Positions 1-64,000 of a DNA stretch of 64,000 nt are shown here, piece by piece (position 1 is the first letter of the stretch; each line of letters begins with the position of its first letter). A program made the position numbers and the translations under genes. The DNA comes from Astropecten irregularis. Lineage: Eukaryota > Echinodermata > Asteroidea > Paxillosida > Astropectinidae. Under the pieces are notes generated by a model. That model was not told the origin of the DNA, ran no database searches, and worked only from the letters and a program-made list of their open reading frames with translations. Where the stretch lies: assembly GCA_963971285.1 (NCBI GenBank), contig OZ020255.1, positions 558,001-622,000 on the forward strand. Direction: 5' to 3'.

Positions 1-3000
1 TTTCCTTTTCAACTCCATTGCTTGTTCGTTGTACTATAAACACAAACTAAGGTTAATGCATTAAGTCATGAAAATCCTGCGTCATGTGTTGCTTTTGCCA
101 TGAGTTAGCTTACGTGAAGGCGTTGTTCCTGAGAAGGCGAAAGTGTTTTGCGATGGAGACGTTGTTCCTTGAGATATCTGGCCGCTTCCTGTGCCACTTC
201 CTACAGAAATATAAACAGAATGGAGACGCTCAGAGATGTGACTCTTCCCCGCTTTTCAGTAAATATGTAAACATGACTGTTTCAATAAACGTGCTATGGA
301 AAATAATTTTGTTTAAATAAACCCTTTAATGTTAACTGAATGGTATTAACGTTTGGTTTAGTAATACAATGAAACACTCACTGATATCACCATCTTAAAC
401 AAAATGGGACGTGGGCCTAACTTCTATCATCTTGAACCAATATGTGGTTAAAATACGTCTTATCATATGTTGACATGGTTTCTTACCTGGAACTGGGAAG
501 ACGAACGGTTGTTTCAGGGTAGTTTTTCTGAGTGCTGTTATCATTGCTAACGTCGTAGACATTTCACTGGCAGCAGAACTTAGAAGTGTTGTAGGTGATG
601 CTGAAGAAATATGCAAAAAATTGTGATAATCAATTATATGAAAAATATAGAAGTTGGAAATGCAGAATGTTTTCGAAGCCTCATTATGATTTTGATGGAT
701 TGCATATGGCTACTTACGTCTTCGTGGTGGTGTCGGTCTTACTGTAACATGTGATTCGCCTGGAGGAGCTGTAATGCAGAAGGAAATACAAGAGGTATTT
801 GACCGGTGGTATTTATGTTTTGGATACCATGATATTAGAAATTACAACATAACTTTAATTAGTTTTTCATCAATACTATTGGTTTTTAAATAGGTCATAT
901 TTGGGTATACTATTTCTTGTAGTTTTACGAGACCCTTTTTTAATTGCAAGACATTCAACTGAGATATGTGAAAAACAGAGAAGTTGGAAATTCAGAATAT
1001 TTTCGAAGACTCATGATTTTGAAGGATTGAAAATGGCTACTTACGTCTTCGTGGTGGTGTCGGTCTTACATCAACTTGTGATTCGCCTGGAGGACCTAAA
1101 TTTACATGTAGAAAGAAATACGAGAGATATTTGACCGGTGGTATTTTTGTTTGGGATACCATGATATTACAAAAATGAGAACATTGCTTTAGTTTGTTTT
1201 TCATGAATTGTATTGGTTTCTAAAAAGGTAATAATATTTGGGGTACTTCTGGTACTATCTCTTGTAGTTTACGAGACTTTTTTTTCTTGAAATTGAAAGA
1301 CAAAACAAAAGTGTTTGTTAAAGAGCAAGTTCATAAAATGTACTTGATTGACATACCTCTTGTAGTTGTGGTGAGAAGACTTGTGGTTGGCATTAGTGTA
1401 CTCAATCTCATTGTAGTGCTTCCTGGTGTTGATGCTGCTGAAATAAAAACAAATACATCGAATATTTATAAGCCTGATTATGATTTTCAGATTGAAAAGC
1501 AAATTGTGAGAGATTTTTGAAAATCGAAACTGATTGTTGGGACAATACATTGTTTGCATAACACACAAGTATCATTTCTACATTTCAATTGTTGTTTTTT
1601 TCCTTTTCAACTCCATTGCTTGTTCGTTGTACTATAAACACAAACTAAGGTTAATGCATTAAGTCATGAAAATCCTGCGTCATGTGTTGCTTTTGCCATG
1701 AGTTAGCTTACGTGAAGGCGTTGTTCCTGAGAAGGCGAAAGTGTTTTGCGATGGAGACGTTGTTCCTTGAGATATCTGGCCGCTTCCTGTGCCACTTCCT
1801 ACAGAAATATAAACAGAATGGAGACGCTCAGAGATGTGACTCTTCCCCGCTTTTCAGTAAATATGTAAACATGACTGTTTCAATAAACGTGCTATGGAAA
1901 ATAATTTTGTTTAAATAAACCCTTTAATGTTAACTGAATGGTATTAACGTTTGGTTTAGTAATACAATGAAACACTCACTGATATCACCATCTTCAACAA
2001 AATGGGACGTGGGCCTAACTTGTATCATCTTGAACCAATATGTGGTTAAAATACGTCTTATCATATGTTGACATAGTTTCTTACCTGGAACTGGGAAGAC
2101 GAACGGTTGTTTCAGGGTAGTTTTTCTGAGTGCTGTTATCATTGCTAACGTCGTAGACATTTCACTGGCAGCAGAACTTAGAAGTGTTGTAGGTGATGCT
2201 GAAGAAATATGCAAAAAATTGTGATAATCAATTATATGAAAAATATAGAAGTTGGAAATGCAGAATGTTTTCGAAGCCTGATTATGATTTTGATGGATTG
2301 AAAATGGCTACTTACGTCTTCGTGGTGGTGTCGGTCTCACTGTAACATGTGATTCGCCTGGAGGAGCTGTAATGCAGAAGGAAATGCAAGAGATATTTGA
2401 CCGGTGGTATTTATGTTTGGGATACCATGTTATTAGAAATTACAACATTACTTTAATTTGTTTTTCATCAATACTATTGGTTTCTAAATAGGTCATGTTT
2501 GGGTATACTATTTCTTGTAGTTTTACGAGACCCTTTTTTTAATTGCAAGACATTCAACTGAGATATGTGAAAAACAGAGAAGTTGGAAATTCAGAATATT
2601 TTCGATGACTCATGATTTTGAAGTATTGAAAATGGCTACTTACGTCTTCGTGGTGGTGTCGGTCTTACATCAACTTGTGATTCGCCTGGAGGACCTAAAT
2701 TTACATGTAGAAAGAAATACGAGAGATATTTGACCGGTGGTATTTTTGTTTGGGATACCATGATATTACAAAAATGAGAACATTGCTTTAGTTTGTTTTT
2801 CATGAATTGTATTGGTTTCTAAAAAGGTAATAATATTTGGGGTACTTCTGGTACTATCTCTTGTAGTTTACGAGACTTTTTTTTCTTGAAATTGAAAGAC
2901 AAAACAAAAGTGTTTGTTAAAGAGCAAGTTCATAAAATGTACTTGATTGACATACCTCTTGTAGTTGTGGTGAGAAGACTTGTGGTTGGCATTAGTGTAC

Positions 3001-50800: not shown

Positions 50801-53800
50801 AACAACGAATAATTGACGGTGAAGGAAAAGAATGCGAAACATTTTAATCAACTAGATCTGCGAATGAACTACAAATAATGGTAGTGGTGTGAAAGGTAAG
50901 GTAGAACAATTTATCTGTCGTACCTTGAGTGGTTGATGGCGGAGGTGTTGTGCTTATGACAGTTGTGGTCACTGTAGTGGTTCGAGTCGTCGGGACAGTG
51001 GTAGAGTATTCTAGAAGAAGAAGAGGTGTTGTTATTAAGATTAGTCATTAAGATGTAAGTCACAATGGGTGTTTGCATTCTTAGATAGAAATATCACGAT
51101 CTGCTTGTAAAGAAATGCTGTAGAGAGACTTACCTTTCACACAACCGAGGACATGAAGCTCAAAAGTTGTTGCATCAGCATCACTGACATTGCGGAACTG
51201 AATACGCAATTCTGTCACACCATCCAGTGTTCCTTCGAAATCTGGCAAAAGCGTCGTGATGGGCTCGTCTTGTTTGACGGTGATGTTTATTAGCTGTAGA
51301 GGAAGATGGTATGGATTCAGCACGGTCAGACACGTTGCTCAGGTGAAAAGAAATGAAAAATTAGATCTTAAAAGATTTATGTTTGCCTGCTTACCTTCTG
51401 TTGTCCAGTGGAGTCATCAATGACGTCAGTAAAGGTGCTGTCTCCTGGTTTCTTAACAGTCAGCGTGACGGTGAATGTTATTGGCTCTTGTGGAGTAGGT
51501 TGCCTTGATGTTGTGCTTTCTTGTGTTCCAGTAGGTACAGTGGTTGACCCAGGAGAGCGCAAAGTGACGACAAAGGCTCTGACTTGGACGGGTTCCCGGA
51601 AGACACGCAGCACACTTGGAATACCACTTGAAGCTTCACCTATTGGTATCTCTGTGATCTTCAGGTACGAGGTGTTTTCGTCAACTGTGAGTGTCCCTTC
51701 AGGTGTGATGCTAGATTCAAGTCCTTTATCGCCATCCATTGGCTCTAGGCAATATCCTATAGGGACAAACAAATGTGAAATCAATCAGTATCCATTGGAG
51801 GGAAATTTGTGGAAGAACTTATTTGGCTTGGAAAAGAAGAAATGTAAATACAGGAAAATCATCCGCATTATCTCTGCAAGGTTATTGTTCTACTCTATCC
51901 TCATACCTGGAGTGGTTGACCTCTCCGATGTTGTCGTGCTCGACCTTGTTGTTTCTTCAGTGATACTTGTAGTCGGTGTAGTGACAGTGGTTACTTTGGT
52001 TGTCATCTCAGTTGTTGAGTATTCTAAAAGAAAATGTGTTTTGCCGTAGAAGACATGAGATATTGAAAGCATGTCATCTGTAGTACTGTTTAGGAAGGGC
52101 ATTGGTAGTCTGCAAAATGTTGCCAGTATTTGATGTGATATGCGTGAAATTTTATTTTGAAAACACAACGGTATTGGGAAAAGGAGAAAATGTTCTTACC
52201 CTCGGCACATCCTAAAACGGTCAGTTGCAGTTCAATAAAATCAGCTTCTTTGACTGTCTGGAACTCAATACGGAATACCAAAATTCCCTCTAGATTGTTG
52301 TCATCCGTCAGGAATGTAACCCTTTGTGACAAGCCTACTTCGAGCACGACGGGTACGCTCTGGAATTTGAAATAAAAGACGAAATATTTATATTCTGCTG
52401 AGGAATGATTTGCTTCGCAGGAAGTACGGACTTGTGAAAATGTGGTCTGATTTTAGTCTCGAATATTGTGTGTTAATTTTGATCTGAACATACCTTTATC
52501 TGATCATTGCTATCCCGCACAGGCGAAAACCTAATGTCTCCGGGTTTCTGTGTGGAGAAAGTTAAGTTAACTTCCACTTGTGCCGGCTTTTGGGTGCTTT
52601 CTGTTGGTGTTGTGGATGACAGTGGCAAATTCAATCTGAGACTGACTGCCCGGACAGTGACTTGTCTGTTAAATGTACTGTCTACGGTAGGTTTCACTTC
52701 CTCTTGTTCAGTAATGGGCAGGTCTTTGAGTGTCACAAGTCCAGTTGTTTCGTCGACAGATGTCGATGCACTACCAGTGACAGAGGCCAGTTGTCCAGAT
52801 GATTTGTCCATTGATTCGAGACAATATCCTGTAGTAAGGGAATCGCGCAGGTTAACAACGAATAATTGACGGTGAAGGAAAAGAATGCGAAACATTTTAA
52901 TCAACTAGATCTGCGAATGAACTACAAATAATGGTAGTGGTGTGAAAGGTAAGGTAGAACAATTTATCTGTCGTACCTTGAGTGGTTGATGGCGGAGGTG
53001 TTGTGCTTATGACAGTTGTGGTCACTGTAGTGGTTCGAGTCGTCGGGACAGTGGTAGAGTATTCTAGAAGAAGAAGAGGTGTTGTTATTAAGATTAGTCA
53101 TTAAGATGTAAGTCACAATGGGTGTTTGCATTCTTAGATAGAAATATCACGATCTGCTTGTAAAGAAATGCTGTAGAGAGACTTACCTTTCACACAACCG
53201 AGGACATGAAGCTCAAAAGTTGTTGCATCAGCATCACTGACATTGCGGAACTGAATACGCAATTCTGTCACACCATCCAGTGTTCCTTCGAAATCTGGCA
53301 AAAGCGTCGTGATGGGCTCGTCTTGTTTGACGGTGATGTTTATTAGCTGTAGAGGAAGATGGTATGGATTCAGCACGGTCAGACACGTTGCCCAGGTGAA
53401 AAGAAATGAACAATTGGATCTTAAAAGATTTATGTTTGCCTGCTTACCTTCTGTTGTCCAGTGGAGTCATCAATGACGTCAGTAAAGGTGCTGTCTCCTG
53501 GTTTCTTAACAGTCAGCGTGACGGTGAATGTTATTGGCTCTTGTGGAGTAGGTTGCCTTGATGTTGTGCTTTCTTGTGTTCCAGTAGGTACAGTGGTTGA
53601 CCCAGGAGAGCGCAAAGTGACGACAAAGGCTCTGACTTGGACGGGTTCCCGGAAGACACGCAGCACACTTGGAATACCACTTGAAGCTTCACCTATTGGT
53701 ATCTCTGTGATCTTCAGGTACGAGGTGTTTTCGTCAACTGTGAGTGTCCCTTCAGGTGTGATGCTAGATTCAAGTCCTTTCTCGCCATCCATTGGCTCTA

Positions 53801-56800
53801 GGCAATATCCTATAGGGACAAACAAATGTGAAATCAATCAGTATCCATTGGAGGGAAATTTGTGGAAGAACTTATTTGGCTTGGAAAAGAAGAAATGTAA
53901 ATACAGGAAAATCATCCGCATTATCTCTGCAAGGTTATTGTTCTACTCTATCCTCATACCTGGAGTGGTTGACCTCTCCGATGTTGTCGTGCTCGACCTT
54001 GTTGTTTCTTCAGTGATACTTGTAGTCGGTGTAGTGACAGTGGTTACTTTGGTTGTCATCTCAGTTGTTGAGTATTCTAAAAGAAAATGTGTTTTGCCGT
54101 AGAAGACATGAGATATTGAAAGCATGTCATCTGTAGTACTGTTTAGGATGGGCATTGGTAGTCTGCAAAATGTTGCCAGTATTTGATGTGATATGCGTGA
54201 AATTTTATTTTGAAAACACAACGGTATTGGGAAAAGGAGAAAATGTTCTTACCCTCGGCACATCCTAAAACGGTCAGTTGCAGTTCAATAGAATCAGCTT
54301 CTTTGACTGTCTGGAACTCAATACGGAATACCAAAATTCCCTCTAGATTGTTGTCATCCGTCAGGAATGTAACCCTTTGTGACAAGCCTACTTCGAGCAC
54401 GACGGGTACGCTCTGGAATTTGAAATAAAAGACGAAATATTTATATTCTGCTGAGGAATGATTTGCTTCGCAGGAAGTACGGACTTGTGAAAATGTGGTC
54501 TGATTTTAGTCTCGAATATTGTGTGTTAATTTTGATCTGAACATACCTTTATCTGATCATTGCTATCCCGCACAGGCGAAAACCTAATGTCTCCGGGTTT
54601 CTGTGTGGAGAAAGTTAAGTTAACTTCCACTTGTGCCGGCTTTTGGGTGCTTTCTGTTGGTGTTGTGGATGACAGTGGCAAATTCAATCTGAGACTGACT
54701 GCCCGGACAGTGACTTGTCTGTTAAATGTACTGTCTACGGTAGGTTTCACTTCCTCTTGTTCAGTAATGGGCATGTCTTTGAGTGTCACAAGTCCAGTTG
54801 TTTCGTCGACAGATGTCGATGCACTACCAGTGACAGAGGCCAGTTGTCCAGATGATTTGTCCATTGATTCGTGACAATATCCTGTAGTAAGGGAATCGCG
54901 CAGGTTAACAACGAATAATTGACGGTGAAGGAAAAGAATGCGAAACATTTTAATCAACTAGATCTGCGAATGAACTACAAATAATGGTAGTGGTGTGAAA
55001 GGTAAGGTAGAACAATTTATCTGTCGTACCTTGAGTGGTTGATGGCGGAGGTGTTGTGCTTATGACAGTTGTGGTCACTGTAGTGGTTCGAGTCGTCGGG
55101 ACAGTGGTAGAGTATTCTAGAAGAAGAAGAGGTGTTGTTATTAAGATTAGTCATTAAGATGTAAGTCACAATGGGTGTTTGCATTCTTAGATAGAAATAT
55201 CACGATCTGCTTGTAAAGAAATGCTGTAGAGAGACTTACCTTTCACACAACCGAGGACATGAAGCTCAAAAGTTGTTGCATCAGCATCACTGACATTGCG
55301 GAACTGAATACGCAATTCTGTCACACCATCCAGTGTTCCTTCGAAATCTGGCAAAAGCGTCGTGATGGGCTCGTCTTGTTTGACGGTGATGTTTATTAGC
55401 TGTAGAGGAAGATGGTATGGATTCAGCACGGTCAGACACGTTGCCCAGGTGAAAAGAAATGAACAATTGGATCTTAAAAGATTTATGTTTGCCTGCTTAC
55501 CTTCTGTTGTCCAGTGGAGTCATCAATGACGTCAGTAAAGGTGCTGTCTCCTGGTTTCTTAACAGTCAGCGTGACGGTGAATGTTATTGGCTCTTGTGGA
55601 GTAGGTTGCCTTGATGTTGTGCTTTCTTGTGTTCCAGTAGGTACAGTGGTTGACCCAGGAGAGCGCAAAGTGACGACAAAGGCTCTGACTTGGACGGGTT
55701 CCCGGAAGACACGCAGCACACTTGGAATACCACTTGAAGCTTCACCTATTGGTATCTCTGTGATCTTCAGGTACGAGGTGTTTTCGTCAACTGTGAGTGT
55801 CCCTTCAGGTGTGATGCTAGATTCAAGTCCTTTCTCGCCATCCATTGGCTCTAGGCAATATCCTATAGGGACAAACAAATGTGAAATCAATCAGTATCCA
55901 TTGGAGGGAAATTTGTGGAAGAACTTATTTGGCTTGGAAAAGAAGAAATGTAAATACAGGAAAATCATCCGCATTATCTCTGCAAGGTTATTGTTCTACT
56001 CTATCCTCATACCTGGAGTGGTTGACCTCTCCGATGTTGTCGTGCTCGACCTTGTTGTTTCTTCAGTGATACTTGTAGTCGGTGTAGTGACAGTGGTTAC
56101 TTTGGTTGTCATCTCAGTTGTTGAGTATTCTAAAAGAAAATGTGTTTTGCCGTAGAAGACATGAGATATTGAAAGCATGTCATCTGTAGTACTGTTTAGG
56201 AAGGGCATTGGTAGTCTGCAAAATGTTGCCAGTATTTGATGTGATATGCGTGAAATTTTATTTTGAAAACACAACGGTATTGGGAAAAGGAGAAAATGTT
56301 CTTACCCTCGGCACATCCTAAAACGGTCAGTTGCAGTTCAATAGAATCAGCTTCTTTGACTGTCTGGAACTCAATACGGAATACCAAAATTCCCTCTAGA
56401 TTGTTGTCATCCGTCAGGAATGTAACCCTTTGTGACAAGCCTACTTCGAGCACGACGGGTACGCTCTGGAATTTGAAATAAAAGACGAAATATTTATATT
56501 CTGCTGAGGAATGATTTGCTTCGCAGGAAGTACGGACTTGTGAAAATGTGGTCTGATTTTAGTCTCGAATATTGTGTGTTAATTTTGATCTGAACATACC
56601 TTTATCTGATCATTGCTATCCCGCACAGGCGAAAACCTAATGTCTCCGGGTTTCTGTGTGGAGAAAGTTAAGTTAACTTCCACTTGTGCCGGCTTTTGGG
56701 TGCTTTCTGTTGGTGTTGTGGATGACAGTGGCAAATTCAATCTGAGACTGACTGCCCGGACAGTGACTTGTCTGTTAAATGTACTGTCTACGGTAGGTTT

Positions 56801-59800
56801 CACTTCCTCTTGTTCAGTAATGGGCAGGTCTTTGAGTGTCACAAGTCCAGTTGTTTCGTCAACAGATGTCGATGCACTACCAGTGACAGAGGCCAGTTGT
56901 CCAGATGATTTGTCCATTGATTCGAGACAATATCCTGTAGTAAGGGAATCGCGCAGGTTAACAACGAATAATTGACGGTGAAGGAAAAGAATGCGAAACA
57001 TTTTAATCAACTAGATCTGCGAATGAACTACAAATAATGGTAGTGGTGTGAAAGGTAAGGTAGAACAATTTATCTGTCGTACCTTGAGTGGTTGATGGCG
57101 GAGGTGTTGTGCTTATGACAGTTGTGGTCACTGTAGTGGTTCGAGTCGTCGGGACAGTGGTAGAGTATTCTAGAAGAAGAAGAGGTGTTGTTATTAAGAT
57201 TAGTCATTAAGATGTAAGTCACAATGGGTGTTTGCATTCTTAGATAGAAATATCACGATCTGCTTGTAAAGAAATGCTGTAGAGAGACTTACCTTTCACA
57301 CAACCGAGGACATGAAGCTCAAAAGTTGTTGCATCAGCATCACTGACATTGCGGAACTGAATACGCAATTCTGTCACACCATCCAGTGTTCCTTCGAAAT
57401 CTGGCAAAAGCGTCGTGATGGGCTCGTCTTGTTTGACGGTGATGTTTATTAGCTGTAGAGGAAGATGGTATGGATTCAGCACGGTCAGACACGTTGCCCA
57501 GGTGAAAAGAAATGAAAAATTGGATCTTAAAAGATTTATGTTTGCCTGCTTACCTTCTGTTGTCCAGTGGAGTCATCAATGACGTCAGTAAAGGTGCTGT
57601 CTCCTGGTTTCTTAACAGTCAGCGTGACGGTGAATGTTATTGGCTCTTGTGGAGTAGGTTGCCTTGATGTTGTGCTTTCTTGTGTTCCAGTAGGTACAGT
57701 GGTTGACCCAGGAGAGCGCAAAGTGACGACAAAGGCTCTGACTTGGACGGGTTCCCGGAAGACACGCAGCACACTTGGAATACCACTTGAAGCTTCACCT
57801 ATTGGTATCTCTGTGATCTTCAGGTACGAGGTGTTTTCGTCAACTGTGAGTGTCCCTTCAGGTGTGATGCTAGATTCAAGTCCTTTCTCGCCATCCATTG
57901 GCTCTAGGCAATATCCTATAGGGACAAACAAATGTGAAATCAATCAGTATCCATTGGAGGGAAATTTGTGGAAGAACTTATTTGGCTTGGAAAAGAAGAA
58001 ATGTAAATACAGGAAAATCATCCGCATTATCTCTGCAAGGTTATTGTTCTACTCTATCCTCATACCTGGAGTGGTTGACCTCTCCGATGTTGTCGTGCTC
58101 GACCTTGTTGTTTCTTCAGTGATACTTGTAGTCGGTGTAGTGACAGTGGTTACTTTGGTTGTCATCTCAGTTGTTGAGTATTCTAAAAGAAAATGTGTTT
58201 TGCCGTAGAAGACATGAGATATTGAAAGCATGTCATCTGTAGTACTGTTTAGGAAGGGCATTGGTAGTCTGCAAAATGTTGCCAGTATTTGATGTGATAT
58301 GCGTGAAATTTTATTTTGAAAACACAACGGTATTGGGAAAAGGAGAAAATGTTCTTACCCTCGGCACATCCTAAAACGGTCAGTTGCAGTTCAATAGAAT
58401 CAGCTTCTTTGACTGTCTGGAACTCAATACGGAATACCAAAATTCCCTCTAGATTGTTGTCATCCGTCAGGAATGTAACCCTTTGTGACAAGCCTACTTC
58501 GAGCACGACGGGTACGCTCTGGAATTTGAAATAAAAGACGAAATATTTATATTCTGCTGAGGAATGATTTGCTTCGCAGGAAGTACGGACTTGTGAAAAT
58601 GTGGTCTGATTTTAGTCTCGAATATTGTGTGTTAATTTTGATCTGAACATACCTTTATCTGATCATTGCTATCCCGCACAGGCGAAAACCTAATGTCTCC
58701 GGGTTTCTGTGTGGAGAAAGTTAAGTTAACTTCCACTTGTGCCGGCTTTTGGGTGCTTTCTGTTGGTGTTGTGGATGACAGTGGCAAATTCAATCTGAGA
58801 CTGACTGCCCGGACAGTGACTTGTCTGTTAAATGTACTGTCTACGGTAGGTTTCACTTCCTCTTGTTCAGTAATGGGCAGGTCTTTGAGTGTCACAAGTC
58901 CAGTTGTTTCGTCAACAGATGTCGATGCACTACCAGTGACAGAGGCCAGTTGTCCAGATGATTTGTCCATTGATTCGAGACAATATCCTGTAGTAAGGGA
59001 ATCGCGCAGGTTAACAACGAATAATTGACGGTGAAGGAAAAGAATGCGAAACATTTTAATCAACTAGATCTGCGAATGAACTACAAATAATGGTAGTGGT
59101 GTGAAAGGTAAGGTAGAACAATTTATCTGTCGTACCTTGAGTGGTTGATGGCGGAGGTGTTGTGCTTATGACAGTTGTGGTCACTGTAGTGGTTCGAGTC
59201 GTCGGGACAGTGGTAGAGTATTCTAGAAGAAGAAGAGGTGTTGTTATTAAGATTAGTCATTAAGATGTAAGTCACAATGGGTGTTTGCATTCTTAGATAG
59301 AAATATCACGATCTGCTTGTAAAGAAATGCTGTAGAGAGACTTACCTTTCACACAACCGAGGACATGAAGCTCAAAAGTTGTTGCATCAGCATCACTGAC
59401 ATTGCGGAACTGAATACGCAATTCTGTCACACCATCCAGTGTTCCTTCGAAATCTGGCAAAAGCGTCGTGATGGGCTCGTCTTGTTTGACGGTGATGTTT
59501 ATTAGCTGTAGAGGAAGATGGTATGGATTCAGCACGGTCAGACACGTTGCCCAGGTGAAAAGAAATGAAAAATTGGATCTTAAAAGATATATGTTTGCCT
59601 GCTTACCTTCTGTTGTCCAGTGGAGTCATCAATGACGTCAGTAAAGGTGCTGTCTCCTGGTTTCTTAACAGTCAGCGTGACGGTGAATGTTATTGGCTCT
59701 TGTGGAGTAGGTTGCCTTGATGTTGTGCTTTCTTGTGTTCCAGTAGGTACAGTGGTTGACCCAGGAGAGCGCAAAGTGACGACAAAGGCTCTGACTTGGA

Positions 59801-62800
59801 CGGGTTCCCGGAAGACACGCAGCACACTTGGAATACCACTTGAAGCTTCACCTATTGGTATCTCTGTGATCTTCAGGTACGAGGTGTTTTCGTCAACTGT
59901 GAGTGTCCCTTCAGGTGTGATGCTAGATTCAAGTCCTTTCTCGCCATCCATTGGCTCTAGGCAATATCCTATAGGGACAAACAAATGTGAAATCAATCAG
60001 TATCCATTGGAGGGAAATTTGTGGAAGAACTTATTTGGCTTGGAAAAGAAGAAATGTAAATACAGGAAAATCATCCGCATTATCTCTGCAAGGTTATTGT
60101 TCTACTCTATCCTCATACCTGGAGTGGTTGACCTCTCCGATGTTGTCGTGCTCGACCTTGTTGTTTCTTCAGTGATACTTGTAGTCGGTGTAGTGACAGT
60201 GGTTACTTTGGTTGTCATCTCAGTTGTTGAGTATTCTAAAAGAAAATGTGTTTTGCCGTAGAAGACATGAGATATTGAAAGCATGTCATCTGTAGTACTG
60301 TTTAGGAAGGGCATTGGTAGTCTGCAAAATGTTGCCAGTATTTGATGTGATATGCGTGAAATTTTATTTTGAAAACACAACGGTATTGGGAAAAGGAGAA
60401 AATGTTCTTACCCTCGGCACATCCTAAAACGGTCAGTTGCAGTTCAATAGAATCAGCTTCTTTGACTGTCTGGAACTCAATACGGAATACCAAAATTCCC
60501 TCTAGATTGTTGTCATCCGTCAGGAATGTAACCCTTTGTGACAAGCCTACTTCGAGCACGACGGGTACGCTCTGGAATTTGAAATAAAAGACGAAATATT
60601 TATATTCTGCTGAGGAATGATTTGCTTCGCAGGAAGTACGGACTTGTGAAAATGTGGTCTGATTTTAGTCTCGAATATTGTGTGTTAATTTTGATCTGAA
60701 CATACCTTTATCTGATCATTGCTATCCCGCACAGGCGAAAACCTAATGTCTCCGGGTTTCTGTGTGGAGAAAGTTAAGTTAACTTCCACTTGTGCCGGCT
60801 TTTGGGTGCTTTCTGTTGGTGTTGTGGATGACAGTGGCAAATTCAATCTGAGACTGACTGCCCGGACAGTGACTTGTCTGTTAAATGTACTGTCTACGGT
60901 AGGTTTCACTTCCTCTTGTTCAGTAATGGGCAGGTCTTTGAGTGTCACAAGTCCAGTTGTTTCGTCGACAGATGTCGATGCACTACCAGTGACAGAGGCC
61001 AGTTGTCCAGATGATTTGTCCATTGATTCGAGACAATATCCTGTAGTAAGGGAATCGCGCAGGTTAACAACGAATAATTGACGGTGAAGGAAAAGAATGC
61101 GAAACATTTTAATCAACTAGATCTGCGAATGAACTACAAATAATGGTAGTGGTGTGAAAGGTAAGGTAGAACAATTTATCTGTCGTACCTTGAGTGGTTG
61201 ATGGCGGAGGTGTTGTGCTTATGACAGTTGTGGTCACTGTAGTGGTTCGAGTCGTCGGGACAGTGGTAGAGTATTCTAGAAGAAGAAGAGGTGTTGTTAT
61301 TAAGATTAGTCATTAAGATGTAAGTCACAATGGGTGTTTGCATTCTTAGATAGAAATATCACGATCTGCTTGTAAAGAAATGCTGTAGAGAGACTTACCT
61401 TTCACACAACCGAGGACATGAAGCTCAAAAGTTGTTGCATCAGCATCACTGACATTGCGGAACTGAATACGCAATTCTGTCACACCATCCAGTGTTCCTT
61501 CGAAATCTGGCAAAAGCGTCGTGATGGGCTCGTCTTGTTTGACGGTGATGTTTATTAGCTGTAGAGGAAGATGGTATGGATTCAGCACGGTCAGACACGT
61601 TGCCCAGGTGAAAAGAAATGAACAATTGGATCTTAAAAGATTTATGTTTGCCTGCTTACCTTCTGTTGTCCAGTGGAGTCATCAATGACGTCAGTAAAGG
61701 TGCTGTCTCCTGGTTTCTTAACAGTCAGCGTGACGGTGAATGTTATTGGCTCTTGTGGAGTAGGTTGCCTTGATGTTGTGCTTTCTTGTGTTCCAGTAGG
61801 TACAGTGGTTGACCCAGGAGAGCGCAAAGTGACGACAAAGGCTCTGACTTGGACGGGTTCCCGGAAGACACGCAGCACACTTGGAATACCACTTGAAGCT
61901 TCACCTATTGGTATCTCTGTGATCTTCAGGTACGAGGTGTTTTCGTCAACTGTGAGTGTCCCTTCAGGTGTGATGCTATATTCAAGTCCTTTCTCGCCAT
62001 CCATTGGCTCTAGGCAATATCCTATAGGGACAAACAAATGTGAAATCAATCAGTATCCATTGGAGGGAAATTTGTGGAAGAACTTATTTGGCTTGGAAAA
62101 GAAGAAATGTAAATACAGGAAAATCATCCGCATTATCTCTGCAAGGTTATTGTTCTACTCTATCCTCATACCTGGAGTGGTTGACCTCTCCGATGTTGTC
62201 GTGCTCGACCTTGTTGTTTCTTCAGTGATACTTGTAGTCGGTGTAGTGACAGTGGTTACTTTGGTTGTCATCTCAGTTGTTGAGTATTCTAAAAGAAAAT
62301 GTGTTTTGCCGTAGAAGACATGAGATATTGAAAGCATGTCATCTGTAGTACTGTTTAGGAAGGGCATTGGTAGTCTGCAAAATGTTGCCAGTATTTGATG
62401 TGATATGCGTGAAATTTTATTTTGAAAACACAACGGTATTGGGAAAAGGAGAAAATGTTCTTACCCTCGGCACATCCTAAAACGGTCAGTTGCAGTTCAA
62501 TAGAATCAGCTTCTTTGACTGTCTGGAACTCAATACGGAATACCAAAATTCCCTCTAGATTGTTGTCATCCGTCAGGAATGTAACCCTTTGTGACAAGCC
62601 TACTTCGAGCACGACGGGTACGCTCTGGAATTTGAAATAAAAGACGAAATATTTATATTCTGCTGAGGAATGATTTGCTTCGCAGGAAGTACGGACTTGT
62701 GAAAATGTGGTCTGATTTTAGTCTCGAATATTGTGTGTTAATTTTGATCTGAACATACCTTTATCTGATCATTGCTATCCCGCACAGGCGAAAACCTAAT

Positions 62801-64000
62801 GTCTCCGGGTTTCTGTGTGGAGAAAGTTAAGTTAACTTCCACTTGTGCCGGCTTTTGGGTGCTTTCTGTTGGTGTTGTGGATGACAGTGGCAAATTCAAT
62901 CTGAGACTGACTGCCCGGACAGTGACTTGTCTGTTAAATGTACTGTCTACGGTAGGTTTCACTTCCTCTTGTTCAGTAATGGGCAGGTCTTTGAGTGTCA
63001 CAAGTCCAGTTGTTTCGTCGACAGATGTCGATGCACTACCAGTGACAGAGGCCAGTTGTCCAGATGATTTGTCCATTGATTCGAGACAATATCCTGTAGT
63101 AAGGGAATCGCGCAGGTTAACAACGAATAATTGACGGTGAAGGAAAAGAATGCGAAACATTTTAATCAACTAGATCTGCGAATGAACTACAAATAATGGT
63201 AGTGGTGTGAAAGGTAAGGTAGAACAATTTATCTGTCGTACCTTGAGTGGTTGATGGCGGAGGTGTTGTGCTTATGACAGTTGTGGTCACTGTAGTGGTT
63301 CGAGTCGTCGGGACAGTGGTAGAGTATTCTAGAAGAAGAAGAGGTGTTGTTATTAAGATTAGTCATTAAGATGTAAGTCACAATGGGTGTTTGCATTCTT
63401 AGATAGAAATATCACGATCTGCTTGTAAAGAAATGCTGTAGAGAGACTTACCTTTCACACAACCGAGGACATGAAGCTCAAAAGTTGTTGCATCAGCATC
63501 ACTGACATTGCGGAACTGAATACGCAATTCTGTCACACCATCCAGTGTTCCTTCGAAATCTGGCAAAAGCGTCGTGATGGGCTCGTCTTGTTTGACGGTG
63601 ATGTTTATTAGCTGTAGAGGAAGATGGTATGGATTCAGCACGGTCAGACACGTTGCCCAGGTGAAAAGAAATGAACAATTGGATCTTAAAAGATTTATGT
63701 TTGCCTGCTTACCTTCTGTTGTCCAGTGGAGTCATCAATGACGTCAGTAAAGGTGCTGTCTCCTGGTTTCTTAACAGTCAGCGTGACGGTGAATGTTATT
63801 GGCTCTTGTGGAGTAGGTTGCCTTGATGTTGTGCTTTCTTGTGTTCCAGTAGGTACAGTGGTTGACCCAGGAGAGCGCAAAGTGACGACAAAGGCTCTGA
63901 CTTGGACGGGTTCCCGGAAGACACGCAGCACACTTGGAATACCACTTGAAGCTTCACCTATTGGTATCTCTGTGATCTTCAGGTACGAGGTGTTTTCGTC
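1..64000 (-). CDS. Giant modular mucin with F5/8-like domains (internal part of one gene)
   Basis: All supported exons lie on the minus strand and join in a single reading frame from right to left. About 207 exons are seen, each bounded by AG at the 5' side and GT at the 3' side. Linker and mini-exons are phase 1 at both ends; domain modules I to III are split 1-0 and 0-1. The predicted chain has about 20 Cys-bounded modules of 160-174 residues separated by Thr/Ser/Pro-rich linkers, then more than 120 mucin mini-exons. No signal peptide, membrane segment, start codon or end of transcript can be identified, so both ends lie outside. A short exon family with a P-G-(E/D)-S motif occurs in the left, middle and 2,550-bp arrays, which supports one gene rather than several neighbours. 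Two or three adjacent paralogues remain possible. No gene name is recognised. Confidence 0.75.
114..8761 (-). CDS. Mucin mini-exons of the 1.6-kb array (types G, S, P, P', M)
   Basis: Five exon types, all phase 1-1. G (87 bp; Gly/Ser/Thr-rich, GSGTGSGQISQGTT): 114-200, 1712-1798, 3311-3397, 4911-4997, 6510-6596, 8107-8193. S (114 bp; begins SPTTLLSSAASEMSTT, ends PFVFPVPG): 487-600, 2085-2198, 3684-3797, 5284-5397, 6882-6995, 8480-8593. P (51 bp; PPGESHVTVRPTPPRR): 718-768, 2316-2366, 3915-3965, 5515-5565, 7113-7163, 8711-8761. P' (51 bp; PPGESQVDVRPTPPRR): 1045-1095, 2644-2694, 4243-4293, 5843-5893, 7440-7490. M (81 bp, or 78 with the inner acceptor; STPGSTTMRLSTLMPTTS): 1357-1437, 2956-3036, 4555-4635, 6155-6235, 7752-7832. 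Transcript order within a unit is M, P', P, S, G, about 128 residues. Donors are GTAAGT, GTAAGA, GTAAGC or GTATGT; acceptors follow T-rich tracts. The Thr/Ser/Pro content fits an O-glycosylated stalk. All copies stay open. Confidence 0.72.
8806..11930. repeat. 1.5-kb tandem repeat, two copies, diverged from the 1.6-kb unit
   Basis: The block around 8988-10263 recurs at about 10489-11765 with a step of 1500-1502 bp. It shares exons G, S and P with the 1.6-kb array but lacks P', and it carries two M-type exons instead of one. It also has about 75 extra bases near 9,750-9,830 and 11,250-11,330. It is a transition zone between the left array and the 663-bp array. Confidence 0.88.
8988..12074 (-). 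CDS. Mucin mini-exons of the 1.5-kb repeat (types Ma, Mb, G, S, P)
   Basis: Phase 1-1 exons. Ma (81 bp; STPASTTKRLSTLLPTTS): 8988-9068, 10489-10569, and a closely related copy 11994-12074. Mb (81 bp; STPGSTTMRLSTLMPTTS): 9199-9279, 10699-10779. G (87 bp): 9556-9642, 11056-11142. S (114 bp): 9983-10096, 11484-11597. P (51 bp): 10213-10263, 11715-11765. Ma is intermediate between M of the left array and A of the middle array: the LSTLLPTTSLLHTTT core of Ma matches A, while its Arg-Gly end matches M. This suggests all these 81-bp exons descend from one ancestor. Splice sites are canonical; the acceptor is mostly CTGCAG. Confidence 0.7.
12085..32150. repeat. 663-bp tandem array, about 30 copies
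   Basis: The unit B-A-C (in + order) recurs every 660-666 bp from about 12.6 kb to 32.1 kb. Units are highly similar but fall into subfamilies, told apart by the intron between A and C, by a poly-A/poly-C length variant between B and A, and by the donor of exon C. The first unit at the left (12,200-12,600) lacks B. The right edge is near 32,150, just past the last C exon. Confidence 0.95.
12200..32144 (-). CDS. 91 mucin mini-exons of the 663-bp array (types A, B, C)
   Basis: All phase 1-1, transcript order C-A-B. A is 81 bp (PTPASTTMGLSTLLPTTS), low ends at 12200, 12626, 13288, 13951, 14615, 15279, 15940, 16604, 17268, 17929, 18593, 19254, 19920, 20581, 21247, 21911, 22572, 23236, 23897, 24563, 25227, 25891, 26552, 27216, 27881, 28542, 29206, 29866, 30531, 31195, 31859. 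B is 81 bp (STPLSTTMRLSTLFPTTS), low ends at 13071, 13733, 14397, 15062, 15723, 16387, 17051, 17712, 18376, 19037, 19702, 20364, 21029, 21694, 22355, 23019, 23680, 24345, 25009, 25674, 26335, 26998, 27664, 28325, 28989, 29650, 30313, 30977, 31642. C is 54 bp (APGESQVHTTTVQPRGG), low ends at 12414, 12858, 13519, 14185, 14847, 15511, 16172, 16836, 17500, 18161, 18825, 19486, 20152, 20813, 21479, 22143, 22804, 23468, 24129, 24795, 25459, 26123, 26784, 27448, 28113, 28774, 29438, 30098, 30763, 31427, 32091. Together about 2,178 residues of Thr/Ser/Pro-rich stalk. Donors are GTATGT after A and B, and GTAAGT or GTGAGT after C. Transcription of every copy is not proven. Confidence 0.72.
32321..32458 (-). 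CDS. Thr-rich linker exon between module IV and the 663-bp array
   Basis: 138 bp, 46 codons, phase 1-1, with acceptor TTCCCAG and donor GTATGT. It encodes a Thr-dominated segment (TTTVTATTSTTSLSTEET, later ETTTQETTITQ). It joins module IV, upstream in the transcript, to the first C exon of the 663-bp array. It is single copy. It is typical mucin sequence with no cysteine. Confidence 0.75.
32520..32658. mobile_element. Small MITE-like element with 17-bp perfect terminal inverted repeats
   Basis: The 17 bases at 32520-32536 (AATGGGAGACTTTGGAG) recur inverted without mismatch at 32642-32658. The interior of about 105 bp contains an alternating purine-pyrimidine tract (GCACGCGCACGCGC, about 32558-32571), unusually CpG-rich for this locus. 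It lies in an intron of the mucin gene. No clear target-site duplication is seen and the family is not recognised. A plain hairpin is the alternative. Confidence 0.5.
32776..33222 (-). CDS. Module IV: divergent single-exon F5/8-like domain
   Basis: 447 bp, 149 codons, phase 1-1. It starts after a TTTTCCAG acceptor with G-E-C-D-E and ends FFGCAEIG before a GTAGGC donor. The first Cys near residue 3 and the G-C near the end match the Cys frame of modules I to III. An internal ENTTYLKV aligns with ENTSYLKI of module I. Unlike the others it is not split by an intron and lacks the Thr/Pro-rich loop in the middle. It carries several N-glycosylation sequons. The donor is weak; reading on, the frame stops at about 32720, so an alternative end of a protein isoform here is possible. 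It is the last Cys-bounded module before the pure mucin part. Confidence 0.62.
33316..33393 (-). CDS. Thr/Pro linker exon upstream of module IV
   Basis: 78 bp, 26 codons, phase 1-1, acceptor TTTACAG, donor GTTAGC (a less usual but valid GT donor). It encodes a segment ending STTPEIKTTTPG. It joins in frame to the start of module IV. Single copy. Confidence 0.6.
33652..33696 (-). CDS. Very short Ser/Thr linker exon
   Basis: 45 bp, 15 codons, phase 1-1, encoding VSEGTDMSTTAAT. The acceptor is CCCAG followed directly by CAG, so a three-base shift of the acceptor would also keep frame. Donor GTAAGT. It is supported by phase and composition only and is the least certain of the linkers. Confidence 0.5.
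33979..34125 (-). CDS. Thr-rich linker exon
   Basis: 147 bp, 49 codons, phase 1-1, acceptor AAAATAG, donor GTGAGT. It encodes a mucin segment beginning FATGEMTTTTTSTSTPLL and ending KTTSNG. It has no cysteine and is unique in the window. Confidence 0.72.
34126..34757. other. Intron of about 630 bp with no recognised content
   Basis: The stretch separates two Thr-rich linker exons. I find no phase-1 exon with splice sites, no repeat shared with the rest of the window and no structural motif. It is one of the longest single-copy introns here. Confidence 0.6.
34758..34904 (-). CDS. Thr-rich linker exon
   Basis: 147 bp, 49 codons, phase 1-1, acceptor TTTAAAG, donor GTAAGT. The product is Thr/Ser-rich (EITTVLEVSPSQVTQ at the start, PNYFTTPG at the end). 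The final TTPG followed by a phase-1 donor matches the end of linker T1 in the right arrays. Confidence 0.75.
35030..35330. mobile_element. SINE-like interspersed repeat in an intron
   Basis: The block includes a conserved-looking stretch (TTTACACCTGGGTGAAGAGG, 35204-35223), then CGAACCCAC and a later GAGTTCGACACGCC that resembles a pol III B box. I recognise the general look of a repeat common in marine deuterostome genomes, but this is from memory and unchecked. Boundaries are approximate. It sits between two linker exons and probably adds nothing to the protein. Confidence 0.4.
35407..35508 (-). CDS. Thr-rich linker exon of the T2 family, downstream of module III
   Basis: 102 bp, 34 codons, phase 1-1, acceptor ACTGTAG, donor GTATTT. 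It starts EYSTTVPTTRSTTTTTSE, the same opening as linker T2 in the repeated units (EYSTTVPTTRTT), so it is a diverged T2. As in the arrays, it directly follows the GCVKG end of a module. Confidence 0.75.
35641..36286 (-). CDS. Module III: F5/8-like domain, two exons
   Basis: First exon 35934-36286 (353 bp, phase 1 to 0), second exon 35641-35797 (157 bp, phase 0 to 1), together 170 residues. It opens GYCLESIDNKHG and closes AFELHVLGCVKG. An N-terminal Cys and a C-terminal hydrophobic-G-C are features of discoidin / factor 5/8 type C domains, where the two Cys pair. Between the strands V-I-V-R-A-V-S and I-N-V-L-F-S lies a Pro/Ser/Thr-rich loop (PPSSNREPMQDSTTPP). It has the same intron position as modules I and II but is clearly diverged and single copy, so it probably predates the array expansions. 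Classification rests on motif and spacing only. Confidence 0.65.
36432..36593 (-). CDS. Long Thr/Ser-rich linker exon
   Basis: 162 bp, 54 codons, phase 1-1, acceptor CCATTAG, donor GTCAGT. It begins EYVTTEITTNSATSTTP and ends ILSTTQG. It links module II, upstream in the transcript, to module III. It is the longest linker in the window. Confidence 0.75.
36908..37533 (-). CDS. Module II, leftmost and most diverged copy
   Basis: Exons 37202-37533 (332 bp) and 36908-37067 (160 bp), 164 residues. It opens GYCLEPMDKSSGQLASV and closes IELQLTVLGCAEG. It differs from the array copies of module II by one codon less in the first exon (LPNTQEQEKATVD in place of LPITEQEEVKPTVD) and by several substitutions. 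It lies outside the 2,053-bp array, so it can serve as an outgroup for the repeated copies. The mid-domain loop is Ser/Thr/Pro-rich (LSSTTPTESTQKPAQ). Confidence 0.68.
37682..37768 (-). CDS. Linker T2, first copy of the 2,550-bp array
   Basis: 87 bp, 29 codons, phase 1-1, acceptor TTCTAG, donor GTATGA. It encodes EYSTTVPTTRTTSVTTT and ends PPPSTTQG. It follows module I directly and precedes module II in transcript order. The same linker recurs 12 times in the window. Confidence 0.78.
37892..38514 (-). CDS. Module I, copy 1: F5/8-like domain, two exons
   Basis: Exon I 38153-38514 (362 bp, phase 1 to 0) and exon I' 37892-38051 (160 bp, phase 0 to 1), 174 residues. It opens GYCLEPMDGEKGLESSI and closes FELHVLGCVKG. 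The start C-x-E-P-x and the end (hydrophobic)-x-V-L-G-C resemble discoidin / factor 5/8 type C domains, a fold that often binds sugars or lipid headgroups outside the cell. Predicted beta strands flank a Thr/Pro-rich loop (STTVPTGTQESTTSRQPTP), an unusual mucin-like insert inside the domain. N-glycosylation sites include ENTS, NIT and NVS. The acceptor is CTATAG, the inner donor GTAAGC and the last donor GTAAGT. Another beta-sandwich family is the main alternative. Confidence 0.7.
38665..38781 (-). CDS. Linker T1', copy 1
   Basis: 117 bp, 39 codons, phase 1-1, acceptor CTTGTAG, donor GTATGA. It starts HSTEKVTTKVTTVTTPTT and ends SERSTTPG. From the fifth or sixth codon on it equals linker T1 of the 2,053-bp array; the first codons differ completely. 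The final G plus the following GA completes Gly before the YC of module I. Confidence 0.75.
38935..38988 (-). CDS. Possible 54-bp exon of the PGES family (PPQETENLKPTVKTTPR)
   Basis: 54 bp, phase 1-1, acceptor GCGCAG, donor GTTATA. The peptide PPQETENLKPTVKTTPR resembles the short exons C and P, and the length and phase match C exactly. The donor is poor, so it may be a dying or rarely used exon. Paralogous copies lie at 42474-42527, 45024-45077 and 47574-47627. Confidence 0.4.
39169..39200 (-). other. Hammerhead-like stem motif, probably degenerate
   Basis: On the minus strand the order is TTTGATAAA, a 6-bp stem (GATCCT...AGGATC) with a 3-base loop, then GAAACG. This recalls the conserved core of hammerhead ribozymes (CUGANGA, stem II, GAAA), but two core positions differ, so activity is unlikely. 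The other 2,550-bp units carry it at 42708-42739, 45258-45289 and 47808-47839. It may be a relic of a small retroelement. Confidence 0.3.
39386..40371. mobile_element. 986-bp non-autonomous DNA transposon with TA target duplication
   Basis: The ends GGGGAAGGCGGGG (39386-39398) and CCCCGCCTTCCCC (40359-40371) are perfect inverted repeats, extending to about 23 bp with two mismatches. TA flanks both sides (39384-39385 and 40372-40373). In the three paralogous units the sequence runs through one TA with no insertion, so the empty site is directly visible. Inside are several subterminal copies of GGGGTAAGTTGAGCC in both directions. No transposase frame is seen. A TA duplication fits the Tc1/mariner superfamily and some others. 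It lies in an intron between exons P and PQ. Confidence 0.85.
40462..40553. mobile_element. (AAT)n tract joined to a TATATAGCGCC hairpin repeat
   Basis: An (ATA)n run of 29 bases leads into TTTATATAGCGCC and, 28 bases on, GGCGCTCTAT, a short inverted repeat. The same block is in the other 2,550-bp units, with 24-base runs beginning at about 43015, 45565 and 48115. This looks like the tail and end of a widespread interspersed element of marine invertebrates. It was present before the 2,550-bp unit was duplicated. Confidence 0.5.
40678..40731 (-). CDS. 54-bp exon of the PGES family (PPGDSEILTTTVQQRRP), copy 1
   Basis: 54 bp, phase 1-1, acceptor TTCCCAG, donor GTAAGT. The peptide PPGDSEILTTTVQQRRP aligns with exon C of the 663-bp array (APGESQVHTTTVQPRGG) with identical length and phase. 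It sits between T2 and T1' in the transcript, where module II is found in the 2,053-bp units. Confidence 0.65.
41221..43279 (-). CDS. 2,550-bp unit, copy 2: T2, module I, T1', PQ, P
   Basis: T2 41221-41307; exon I' 41431-41590; exon I 41692-42053; T1' 42204-42320; weak PQ exon 42474-42527; P exon 43226-43279. It differs from copy 1 by CLEPLDGEKG in place of CLEPMDGEKG and keeps ITELPIG and RSPESTT. No transposon is present: the empty TA site reads CCCTACTTG near 42931-42939. Confidence 0.72.
43771..45829 (-). CDS. 2,550-bp unit, copy 3: T2, module I, T1', PQ, P
   Basis: T2 43771-43857; exon I' 43981-44140; exon I 44242-44603; T1' 44754-44870; PQ 45024-45077; P 45776-45829. Module I here has ITEIPIG and RSPGSTT, the variants shared with all copies further right, while copies 1 and 2 have ITELPIG and RSPESTT. 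This places the expansion boundary between copies 2 and 3. Confidence 0.72.
46321..48379 (-). CDS. 2,550-bp unit, copy 4: T2, module I, T1', PQ, P
   Basis: T2 46321-46407; exon I' 46531-46690; exon I 46792-47153; T1' 47304-47420; PQ 47574-47627; P 48326-48379. Module I carries PMDGDKG (Asp for Glu), a variant shared with the next two copies to the right (49.3 and 51.4 kb), although those belong to the other unit type. Confidence 0.72.
48871..50775 (-). CDS. Junction unit: T2, module I, T1, module II
   Basis: T2 48871-48957; I' 49081-49240; I 49342-49703; T1 49854-49970; II' 50147-50306; II 50441-50775. It is the first unit with module II left of the array. Module I has GDKG. Linker T1 begins EYSTTEMTTKVTTV rather than HSTEKVTTKV. 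Module II opens GYCLESMDKSSGQ and closes LTVLGCAEG; its first exon is 335 bp with an LSSTTPTENTQKPAQ loop (Asn where other copies have Ser). Splicing is 1-0 and 0-1, as in module I. Confidence 0.72.
50924..52828 (-). CDS. 2,053-bp unit: T2, module I, T1, module II
   Basis: T2 50924-51010 (donor GTACGA); I' 51134-51293; I 51395-51756; T1 51907-52023; II' 52200-52359; II 52494-52828. Module I has GDKG. Exon II' has EADFIELQL where the other copies have EADSIELQL. Confidence 0.72.
52977..54881 (-). CDS. 2,053-bp unit: T2, module I, T1, module II
   Basis: T2 52977-53063; I' 53187-53346; I 53448-53809; T1 53960-54076; II' 54253-54412; II 54547-54881. Module I returns to GEKG. Module II has GYCHESMD (His for Leu next to the first Cys) and LKDMPIT (Met for Leu), the most divergent module II of the array. 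Confidence 0.72.
55030..56934 (-). CDS. 2,053-bp unit: T2, module I, T1, module II
   Basis: T2 55030-55116; I' 55240-55399; I 55501-55862; T1 56013-56129; II' 56306-56465; II 56600-56934. It matches the array consensus. A synonymous change near 56860 (TCAACA for TCGACA on the plus strand) is shared with the next unit to the right. Confidence 0.72.
57083..58987 (-). CDS. 2,053-bp unit: T2, module I, T1, module II
   Basis: T2 57083-57169; I' 57293-57452; I 57554-57915; T1 58066-58182; II' 58359-58518; II 58653-58987. It matches the array consensus in protein. Confidence 0.72.
59136..61040 (-). CDS. 2,053-bp unit: T2, module I, T1, module II
   Basis: T2 59136-59222; I' 59346-59505; I 59607-59968; T1 60119-60235; II' 60412-60571; II 60706-61040. 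Its protein matches the consensus. One intronic base change downstream of exon I lengthens the open frame past the donor, without affecting the spliced product. Confidence 0.72.
61189..63093 (-). CDS. 2,053-bp unit: T2, module I, T1, module II
   Basis: T2 61189-61275; I' 61399-61558; I 61660-62021; T1 62172-62288; II' 62465-62624; II 62759-63093. Module I has GLEYSITPEG where every other copy has GLESSITPEG. Confidence 0.72.
63242..64000 (-). CDS. 2,053-bp unit, cut by the window edge: T2 and most of module I
   Basis: T2 63242-63328; I' 63452-63611; exon I from 63713 to beyond 64000 (288 of an expected 362 bp). The sequence is still at consensus at the edge, so the array continues upstream in the gene. 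Confidence 0.72.

What the first reader, a model, noticed from the sequence alone, without database searches (positions are those of the whole stretch)
1..64000. One giant gene built from more than 200 phase-1 exons and four nested exon arrays
Seen: minus-strand exons with GT/AG borders fill the whole window, and all join in one frame when read right to left; about 24 kb is coding. Known: symmetric phase-1 exons can be shuffled or multiplied without frame damage and are typical of animal extracellular proteins. Inferred: this is an internal part of a mucin-like protein of more than 8,000 residues, grown by repeated unequal exchange at four scales (663, about 1,600, 2,053 and 2,550 bp). I know of no described protein with this combination.
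Basis: partly seen in the sequence, partly recalled or inferred. Interest (0 to 1): 0.85.

Follow-up and report, generated by a model that had tools for sequence, protein, structure and literature searches.

The report
Giant echinoderm gel-forming mucin gene
The window is the middle of a roughly half-million-base animal gene, very probably from a sea star or another echinoderm, that appears to encode a slime-forming mucin built from over a thousand small repeated exons, which could be among the largest proteins predicted so far.

Summary
The window's minus strand carries about 202 modelled exons (22.7 kb coding, no stop when joined) in consecutive arrays of ~1,598, ~663, 2,550 and 2,053 bp. 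Not all borders are phase 1: 163 of 202 exons are 1-1, and domain exons are split by phase-0 introns. The window is C19:558,001-622,000 of an unnamed 476-Mb genome with an echinoderm-type mitochondrial code. Related arrays run on to C19 ~989 kb. On the same strand lie three VWD-C8 assemblies upstream (1,013-1,033 kb; D3 piece closest to Mucin-2 in the PDB) and a cystine knot followed by a stop downstream (529 kb), with no VWD, C8 or knot match between. So this is best read as the centre of a gel-forming mucin gene of about 500 kb. The centre alternates Thr-rich mini-exons with roughly 360 copies (inferred) of a domain below every Pfam cut-off; its low-confidence model looks discoidin-like. If all exons are joined, the product would be about 80,000 residues from 1,300 or more exons (inferred). 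No transcript was available; one full-length mRNA is unproven, and exon skipping could shorten it.

The parts
1..11765 (-). part of the ~1,598-bp array (spacing ~1,450-1,600): per unit mini-exons of 114, 51, 51, 78-81 and 87 nt, phase 1-1 (array starts outside the window at C19 ~545.4 kb)
   Evidence: exon columns polymorphic 19/381 with 0 gap columns, intron columns 102/1,229 with 113 gap columns over 13 units
11994..32144 (-). ~663-bp array, about 30 units of three phase 1-1 mini-exons (54, 81, 81 nt) encoding Thr/Ser/Pro-rich peptide
   Evidence: exon columns polymorphic 7/216, intron 82/452 over 29 units
27881..27961 (-). example mini-exon, 81 nt
28113..28166 (-). example mini-exon, 54 nt
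28325..28405 (-). example mini-exon, 81 nt
32780..33220 (-). one copy of the globular domain in a single open frame (147 residues), used for the fold prediction
33316..34125 (-). non-repeated linker exons (33316-33393, 33652-33696, 33979-34125), phase 1-1
35641..36284 (-). diverged domain copy in two exons (translated parts 35934-36284 and 35641-35797), split by a phase-0 intron
36432..36593 (-). Thr-rich linker exon, 162 nt, phase 1-1
36908..38781 (-). leftmost A-B domain pair with linkers
40678..47420 (-). 2,550-bp units: linker (117), domain A in two exons (362+160), linker (87), mini-exon (54)
48326..64000 (-). junction with, and left end of, the 2,053-bp array (exons continue at this spacing to C19 ~790 kb); per unit six exons, 1,221 coding nt, 407 residues, two domains and two Thr-rich linkers
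51907..52023 (-). linker exon 1 (117 nt, phase 1-1), reference unit
51395..51756 (-). domain A first exon (362 nt, phase 1-0)
51134..51293 (-). domain A second exon (160 nt, phase 0-1)
50924..51010 (-). linker exon 2 (87 nt, phase 1-1)
50441..50775 (-). domain B first exon (335 nt, phase 1-0)
50147..50306 (-). domain B second exon (160 nt, phase 0-1)

Best explanation
The window is the middle of one minus-strand gene for a secreted gel-forming mucin, in a genome that is very probably an echinoderm's. The gene runs from upstream of C19 ~1,033 kb (three VWD-C8 assemblies, probably preceded by EGF-like exons) through arrays at 989-545 kb to a terminal cystine knot and stop at ~529.3 kb. Shown: exons on one strand, an intact frame in all full-length exon copies examined, fewer indels (and in the mini-exon arrays fewer substitutions) in exons than in introns, and the terminal domains. 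Inferred: the D assemblies and the cystine knot link monomers through disulfides, as in MUC2 and von Willebrand factor. Inferred: the Thr/Ser/Pro mini-exons form the O-glycosylated, water-holding stretches. Inferred: the roughly 360 discoidin-like domains between them act as spaced weak cross-links or glycan-binding points, in the place that CysD domains hold in vertebrate mucins. Inferred: modules bounded by phase-1 introns let unequal exchange add or remove units of 0.66 to 3.5 kb without breaking the frame, so the molecule could grow to about 80,000 residues.
For: Same-strand exons. VWD minus-strand matches at C19 1,014,336, 1,015,259, 1,022,218 and 1,031,172, and 0 of 111 VWD matches between 529 and 1,013 kb (145 of 145 candidates scored). 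C8 minus-strand matches at 1,013,411, 1,019,695 and 1,030,830, and 0 of 59 between 529 and 1,013 kb (80 of 80 scored). Of 11 cystine-knot matches genome-wide, one, at 529,343, lies within 529-1,040 kb (17 of 17 scored); a stop follows it. The D3 piece is closest to Mucin-2 in the PDB and the knot to von Willebrand factor. An exon running from Cys-containing sequence into poly-Thr ends in phase 1 just before the first domain. 346 of 346 full-length exon matches at 594-722 kb are intact, and 43 of 43 in 13 sampled loci at 722-971 kb; partial matches were not counted. Gap columns 0 of 1,221 in exons, 36 of 833 in introns; mini-exons more conserved than introns. dN/dS 0.39 against a distant unit family whose introns gave no alignment. 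Most of the 50 listed Foldseek matches are discoidin/F5-8C, carbohydrate-binding or APC10/DOC-type domains, by title and recall.
Against: No transcript or protein data, so a single mRNA is not shown. No clear signal peptide or start was found in the 5.5 kb read at 1,030.8-1,036.3 kb. Most of 994.5-1,013.8 kb, parts between the VWD exons, and most of 724-967 kb were not read base by base. The piece read as the start of D1 and the Cys-rich exons before the array had no Pfam match over cut-off. The fold model is weak (mean pLDDT 57, pTM 0.52; no Foldseek match at E 0.001 or below). Against the unit family at 800-850 kb substitutions are 9 synonymous and 36 non-synonymous (dN/dS 1.36), which shows no purifying selection at that scale. 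Within the 2,053-bp array substitutions are only slightly rarer in exons (41 of 1,221 against 39 of 833 columns). Exon skipping could make real products much shorter.
Confidence: 0.78

Rival explanations
1. One gene, but many exons are skipped in any given mRNA, so that a family of much shorter mucins is made from the array.
For: Linker exons are 1-1 and domain pairs are symmetric, so skipping keeps the frame. PMC1552070 raises the idea that splicing could set PTS length for chicken Muc13 (passages).
Against: All full-length copies examined keep splice borders and frame, which would not be needed if most were never used. No transcript data either way.
Confidence: 0.35
2. Several neighbouring genes on the same strand: a VWD gene at 1.01-1.04 Mb, one or more repeat genes at 545-989 kb, and a cystine-knot gene at 529-543 kb.
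For: No transcript links them. Unit families differ (1,598, 663, 2,550, 2,053, 3,493 bp). Most of 994.5-1,013.8 kb was not read.
Against: Cys-rich exons lead through a poly-Thr exon to the first domain. The same domain family continues towards the knot: hits at 533-539 kb and a copy read by eye at 541-543 kb. Elsewhere on C19 VWD/C8 and cystine-knot matches also occur on the same strand in the same order.
Confidence: 0.17
3. The array is real, but its assembled length is wrong (over- or under-expanded by the assembler).
For: Units are up to 99.8-100% identical over long distances. No reads were available.
Against: Units carry their own variants and indels (lengths 2,053, 2,045, 2,054, 2,030, 2,051). 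Sub-families form blocks.
Confidence: 0.12
4. A decaying or non-coding satellite-like array that resembles exons.
For: High-copy tandem units.
Against: 0 of 346 full-length exon matches broken; indels only in introns; control scores.
Confidence: 0.02

Closest known systems
Gel-forming mucins MUC2/MUC5AC/MUC5B and von Willebrand factor
   Same: N-terminal VWD-C8 assemblies, Thr/Ser/Pro-rich centre, globular domains set into that centre, C-terminal cystine knot
   Different: The centre is split into over 1,000 small exons (inferred count) instead of one large exon (human MUC2 central exon 8,793 bp with 98 repeats; PMC6269512, passages). The set-in domain looks discoidin-like, not CysD. EGF-like exons seem to precede D1 (by eye). 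Size is about tenfold or more (MUC sizes recalled).
CysD (CYS) domains of mucins
   Same: A globular domain alternating with glycosylated stretches; proposed to self-associate; adding a poly-CYS protein lowered mesh size (PMC6861317, abstract and passages)
   Different: 2, 9 and 7 copies in MUC2, MUC5AC and MUC5B (same passages), against about 360 here (inferred); a different fold as far as predicted
Chicken Muc13
   Same: PTS region encoded by multiple exons, one repeat unit each (PMC1552070, passages)
   Different: A transmembrane mucin (same passages); no VWD or cystine knot (recalled)
Sea star footprint proteins (Sfp1, Sfp2, Sfp10, Sfp11, Sfp13)
   Same: Sea star secreted proteins; passages name VWD, C8 and TIL domains for some, and galactose-binding or F5/8C domains for others (PMC9382459, passages)
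   Different: Giant Thr-rich arrays are not mentioned in the passages seen; homology to this gene was not tested
Other giant proteins: titin (~36,000 aa), PKZILLA-1 (~45,000 aa), Omnitrophota giants (up to ~85,000 aa)
   Same: Extreme length (sizes recalled; passages mention them without these numbers)
   Different: Unrelated proteins (recalled)

Membership tests
gel-forming mucin | N-terminal VWD domains with C8 (D1, D2, D3) | tested here: met
   VWD over cut-off at four minus-strand places, C8 at three; pieces also over cut-off, except the D1 start; D3 piece best PDB match Mucin-2
gel-forming mucin | large Pro/Thr/Ser-rich region | tested here: met
   phase 1-1 exons of the window: 30.7% Thr, 13.5% Ser, 10.7% Pro over 4,107 residues
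gel-forming mucin | C-terminal cystine knot | tested here: met
   DAN 8.3e-9, Cys_knot 2.6e-7, both over cut-off; vWF best PDB match; stop after it
gel-forming mucin | signal peptide | tested here: inconclusive
   no clear one in 1,030.8-1,036.3 kb; EGF-like exons continue there
gel-forming mucin | all of these in one polypeptide | not testable with these tools
   no transcript data; same strand and order support it
gel-forming mucin | D4 and VWC domains before the knot (recalled for MUC2-type mucins) | tested here: inconclusive
   Cys-containing exons at C19 529.9-530.4 kb seen but no Pfam match (protein 2); no VWD match there
F5/8 type C (discoidin) domain | Pfam PF00754 match over cut-off | tested here: not met
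   one of six copies matches, 13.6 bits against cut-off 28.2; none for the copies
F5/8 type C (discoidin) domain | galactose-binding-like beta-sandwich with Cys near both ends | tested here: inconclusive
   model pLDDT 57; Foldseek best E 1.2e-3, none at 0.001 or below; a Cys at the second residue and one in the final GC motif in 10 of 10 copies picked by me
CysD domain | Cys-rich ~110-residue domain | tested here: not met
   only two conserved Cys columns in the 10 aligned copies

The most novel reading that the evidence does not exclude
All units are transcribed, spliced and translated in order, giving one mucin of about 80,000-85,000 residues from about 1,300-1,400 exons. That would be the longest animal protein and the most exon-rich gene known (comparison recalled), with about 360 lectin-like domains as spaced cross-link points, and with length set by copy number.
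Probability: 0.45. Interest if true: 0.95.

Novelty: new variant of a known kind. Interest (0 to 1): 0.84.

Why it matters
If one transcript covers it, this sets new limits for spliced gene complexity and protein length in animals, and shows a second way to build a giant mucin: exon arrays bounded by phase-1 introns instead of one huge repeat exon. It would be a natural polymer with hundreds of near-identical globular cross-link points, useful for understanding slime, adhesion and mucus mesh. It also makes a question directly testable: whether cells can finish an mRNA of about 250 kb (inferred) with over a thousand exons, or use skipping to set mucin length. In a UniProtKB survey the two proteomes with the most huge proteins are echinoderms (Patiria miniata with 250 first; PMC11573180, passages).

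Tried and rejected
Pseudogene or satellite: rejected by intact exons and controls. Plus-strand ORFs of 225-231 aa: they recur with the array and overlap the domain A first exon and its linker on the other strand; the plus strand scores 268 against 5,823 in the exon model, so they were taken as mirror images. Tandem Repeats Finder found only a 29-bp ATA run; its longest period is 500. Pfam on the unit protein gave only DUF3821 at E 0.069, below cut-off. PDB sequence search with a diverged domain copy gave a phage distal tail protein at E 0.0065 and weaker hits, not followed. A query with that copy found only itself in the genome (2 of 2 candidates). Looser Viterbi settings did not add exons to the 2,550-bp unit. 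Rows dropped: partial exon matches; intervals outside 1,950-2,150 bp (53 units from 58 anchors); intervals outside the set range (29 units from 30 anchors; 13 from 14); one exon without a full match. Literature: searches listed no paper that by title or abstract start describes such a gene; only open-licence papers are held, and listings, abstracts or passages were seen, no whole paper.

Full report
WHERE IT LIES. A 16.3-kb contig carries a COX1 gene that is open under codes 4, 5, 9, 13 and 14 but not under code 2. The stretch FSTNHKDIGTLY, conserved in animal COX1 as I recall, appears when AAA is read as Asn and AGA as Ser, as in the echinoderm code 9. That points to an echinoderm. An ND4L-like reading lies between COX1 and COX2, and ND1 can be read by eye on the opposite strand in the letters printed; by recalled gene order this fits sea stars. 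The species was not identified.

THE OBSERVATION. An exon model started from one 2,053-bp unit and retrained on the window finds 202 minus-strand exons, 22,669 coding nt. Score 5,823; the plus strand scores 268 and 5 dinucleotide-matched simulations score 35-46 (trained on this window, so favoured there). Joined, they give 7,556 residues and no stop. 163 exons are phase 1-1, 19 are 1-0, 20 are 0-1. So the two-exon domains are cut by a phase-0 intron, and each domain pair of exons, like each linker, is a phase-1 module. Spacings: ~1,598 bp (C19 545.4 to ~569 kb, shorter towards its right end), ~663 bp (570-590 kb), 2,550 bp (about 598-607 kb), then 2,053 bp.

IT IS CODING. Of 346 full-length matches to six exon kinds in the contiguous stretch 594-722 kb, 346 have GT/AG borders, frame-preserving length and no stop (partial matches not counted). 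In 13 sampled loci at 722-971 kb, 43 full-length matches were found and 43 are intact. Among 53 aligned units, gap columns are 0 of 1,221 in exons and 36 of 833 in introns; polymorphic columns are 41 and 39; pN/pS is 0.58. In the 663-bp array (29 units) polymorphic columns are 7 of 216 in exons and 82 of 452 in introns; in the 1,598-bp array (13 units) 19 of 381 and 102 of 1,229. Against the distant unit family at 967-985 kb, dN/dS is 0.39 over five exons (0.07 in one Thr-rich linker), and none of six introns gave an alignment; the sixth exon gave no full match and is left out. Against the nearer family at 800-850 kb the count is 9 synonymous and 36 non-synonymous (dN/dS 1.36), a result that shows no purifying selection at that scale and may mean relaxed or changing selection.

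HOW FAR IT GOES. All 11 probes taken between 722 and 931 kb are array (seven, four). One 53-residue exon gave 364 first-look candidates, of which 150 were scored; all 150 lie on C19, minus strand, without stops, from 595.9 to 931.0 kb, spaced mostly 2,053 bp up to ~790 kb and mostly 2,048 bp after ~809 kb, with 2.4-kb steps between. Two further exon kinds form a 3,493-bp array at 933-988 kb with 32 and 16 copies (150 of 363 and 150 of 364 candidates scored, all on C19). From spacing I infer about 160 A-B units. The loose first-look totals of 363-364 in three searches suggest about 360 domain copies; those not scored were not seen.

THE ENDS. Upstream on the same strand come an exon that runs from Cys-containing sequence into poly-Thr just before the first domain (989,032-989,227) and Cys-rich open stretches at 989.8-990.0 and 991.5-991.9 kb (no Pfam match over cut-off). 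Then come VWD matches at 1,014,336, 1,015,259, 1,022,218 and 1,031,172 and C8 at 1,013,411, 1,019,695 and 1,030,830. Three EGF-like stretches are visible by eye at 1,033.4-1,035.4 kb (not tested with Pfam). The D3 piece matches Mucin-2 best in the PDB (9.3e-49 for a chain with three matched stretches; 1e-26 for a chain with one). Downstream lie diverged domain copies at 533-539 kb, one more read by eye at 541-543 kb, and a cystine knot in the frame 529,328-529,669, which ends in a stop. None of 111 VWD, 59 C8 or 11 cystine-knot matches genome-wide lies between 530 and 1,013 kb (E up to 0.001, 0.01 and 0.01). This is the layout of a gel-forming mucin.

THE DOMAIN. About 130-175 residues, a Cys at the second residue and a final GC motif in 10 of 10 copies that I picked and aligned. 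Pfam gives at most a sub-threshold F5/8 type C match (13.6 bits, cut-off 28.2). A model of the single-frame copy (window 32,780-33,220), with eight window exon fragments as alignment, has mean pLDDT 57 and pTM 0.52; the fragments are partly misaligned. Most of the 50 listed Foldseek matches to solved structures are APC10/DOC, CBM32 and other carbohydrate-binding, discoidin or PITH domains (by title and recall); at least one, a phage tail fibre at probability 0.41, is not; best E 1.2e-3, none at 0.001 or below. I read this as a diverged discoidin-like domain, with caution.

SIZE. Inferred: about 160 units x 407 residues, about 10,400 residues from the 3,493-bp array, and about 8,000 for the rest: 80,000-85,000 residues and about 1,300-1,400 exons if nothing is skipped. 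This rests on spacing and sampled units, not on a full read.

MECHANISM AND STANDING. Oligomerisation by D assemblies and knot, O-glycosylation of the linkers, and cross-linking by the set-in domains are inferred from the known behaviour of gel-forming mucins (CYS domain data: PMC6861317, abstract and passages). Growth by unequal exchange is inferred from near-identical units with block structure. An exon-per-repeat mucin region was described in chicken Muc13, with the suggestion that splicing could set its length (PMC1552070, passages). Human MUC2 keeps its repeats in one 8,793-bp exon (PMC6269512, passages). Searches listed no description of such a gene. The verdict is a gel-forming mucin with a new kind of centre: new variant of a known kind.

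Noticed in passing
G000 C19 4.67-5.37 Mb and 12.85-12.93 Mb (outside the window): Further VWD/C8 and cystine-knot matches on matching strands (for example VWD at 5.155-5.176 Mb + with a knot at 5.374 Mb +; VWD at 4.67-4.69 Mb + with a knot at 4.862 Mb +), suggesting more very large gel-forming mucin genes on the same contig.
   Followed up: no
G000 C10 27.05-27.10 Mb and C20 4.14-4.21 Mb: Runs of many VWD and C8 matches, on C10 at nearly regular spacing; perhaps IgGFc-binding-protein-like or other VWD repeat genes (naming recalled).
   Followed up: no
G000 C131 (102,890 bp), L059: A COX1 in an open frame of 552 aa without TGA codons, unlike the mitochondrial copy: probably a bacterial contig or symbiont in the assembly.
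   Followed up: no
G000 C25:9,951,047-9,952,018: Partial COX1 with 7 in-frame TGA: probably a nuclear copy of mitochondrial DNA.
   Followed up: no
C19 510.8-512.0 kb (L014): A 75-bp minisatellite that stays open over 308 and 340 codons in two minus-strand frames; other short-period arrays of about 55, 64 and 73 bp lie between 462 and 518 kb.
   Followed up: no
C19 862.8-867.4 kb: Spacing between neighbouring scored domain A exons jumps from 2,048 to 4,578 bp, perhaps an insertion in the array or a copy not scored.
   Followed up: no
window 40,462-40,490: ATA microsatellite, 29 bp, next to the leftmost 2,550-bp unit.
   Followed up: no
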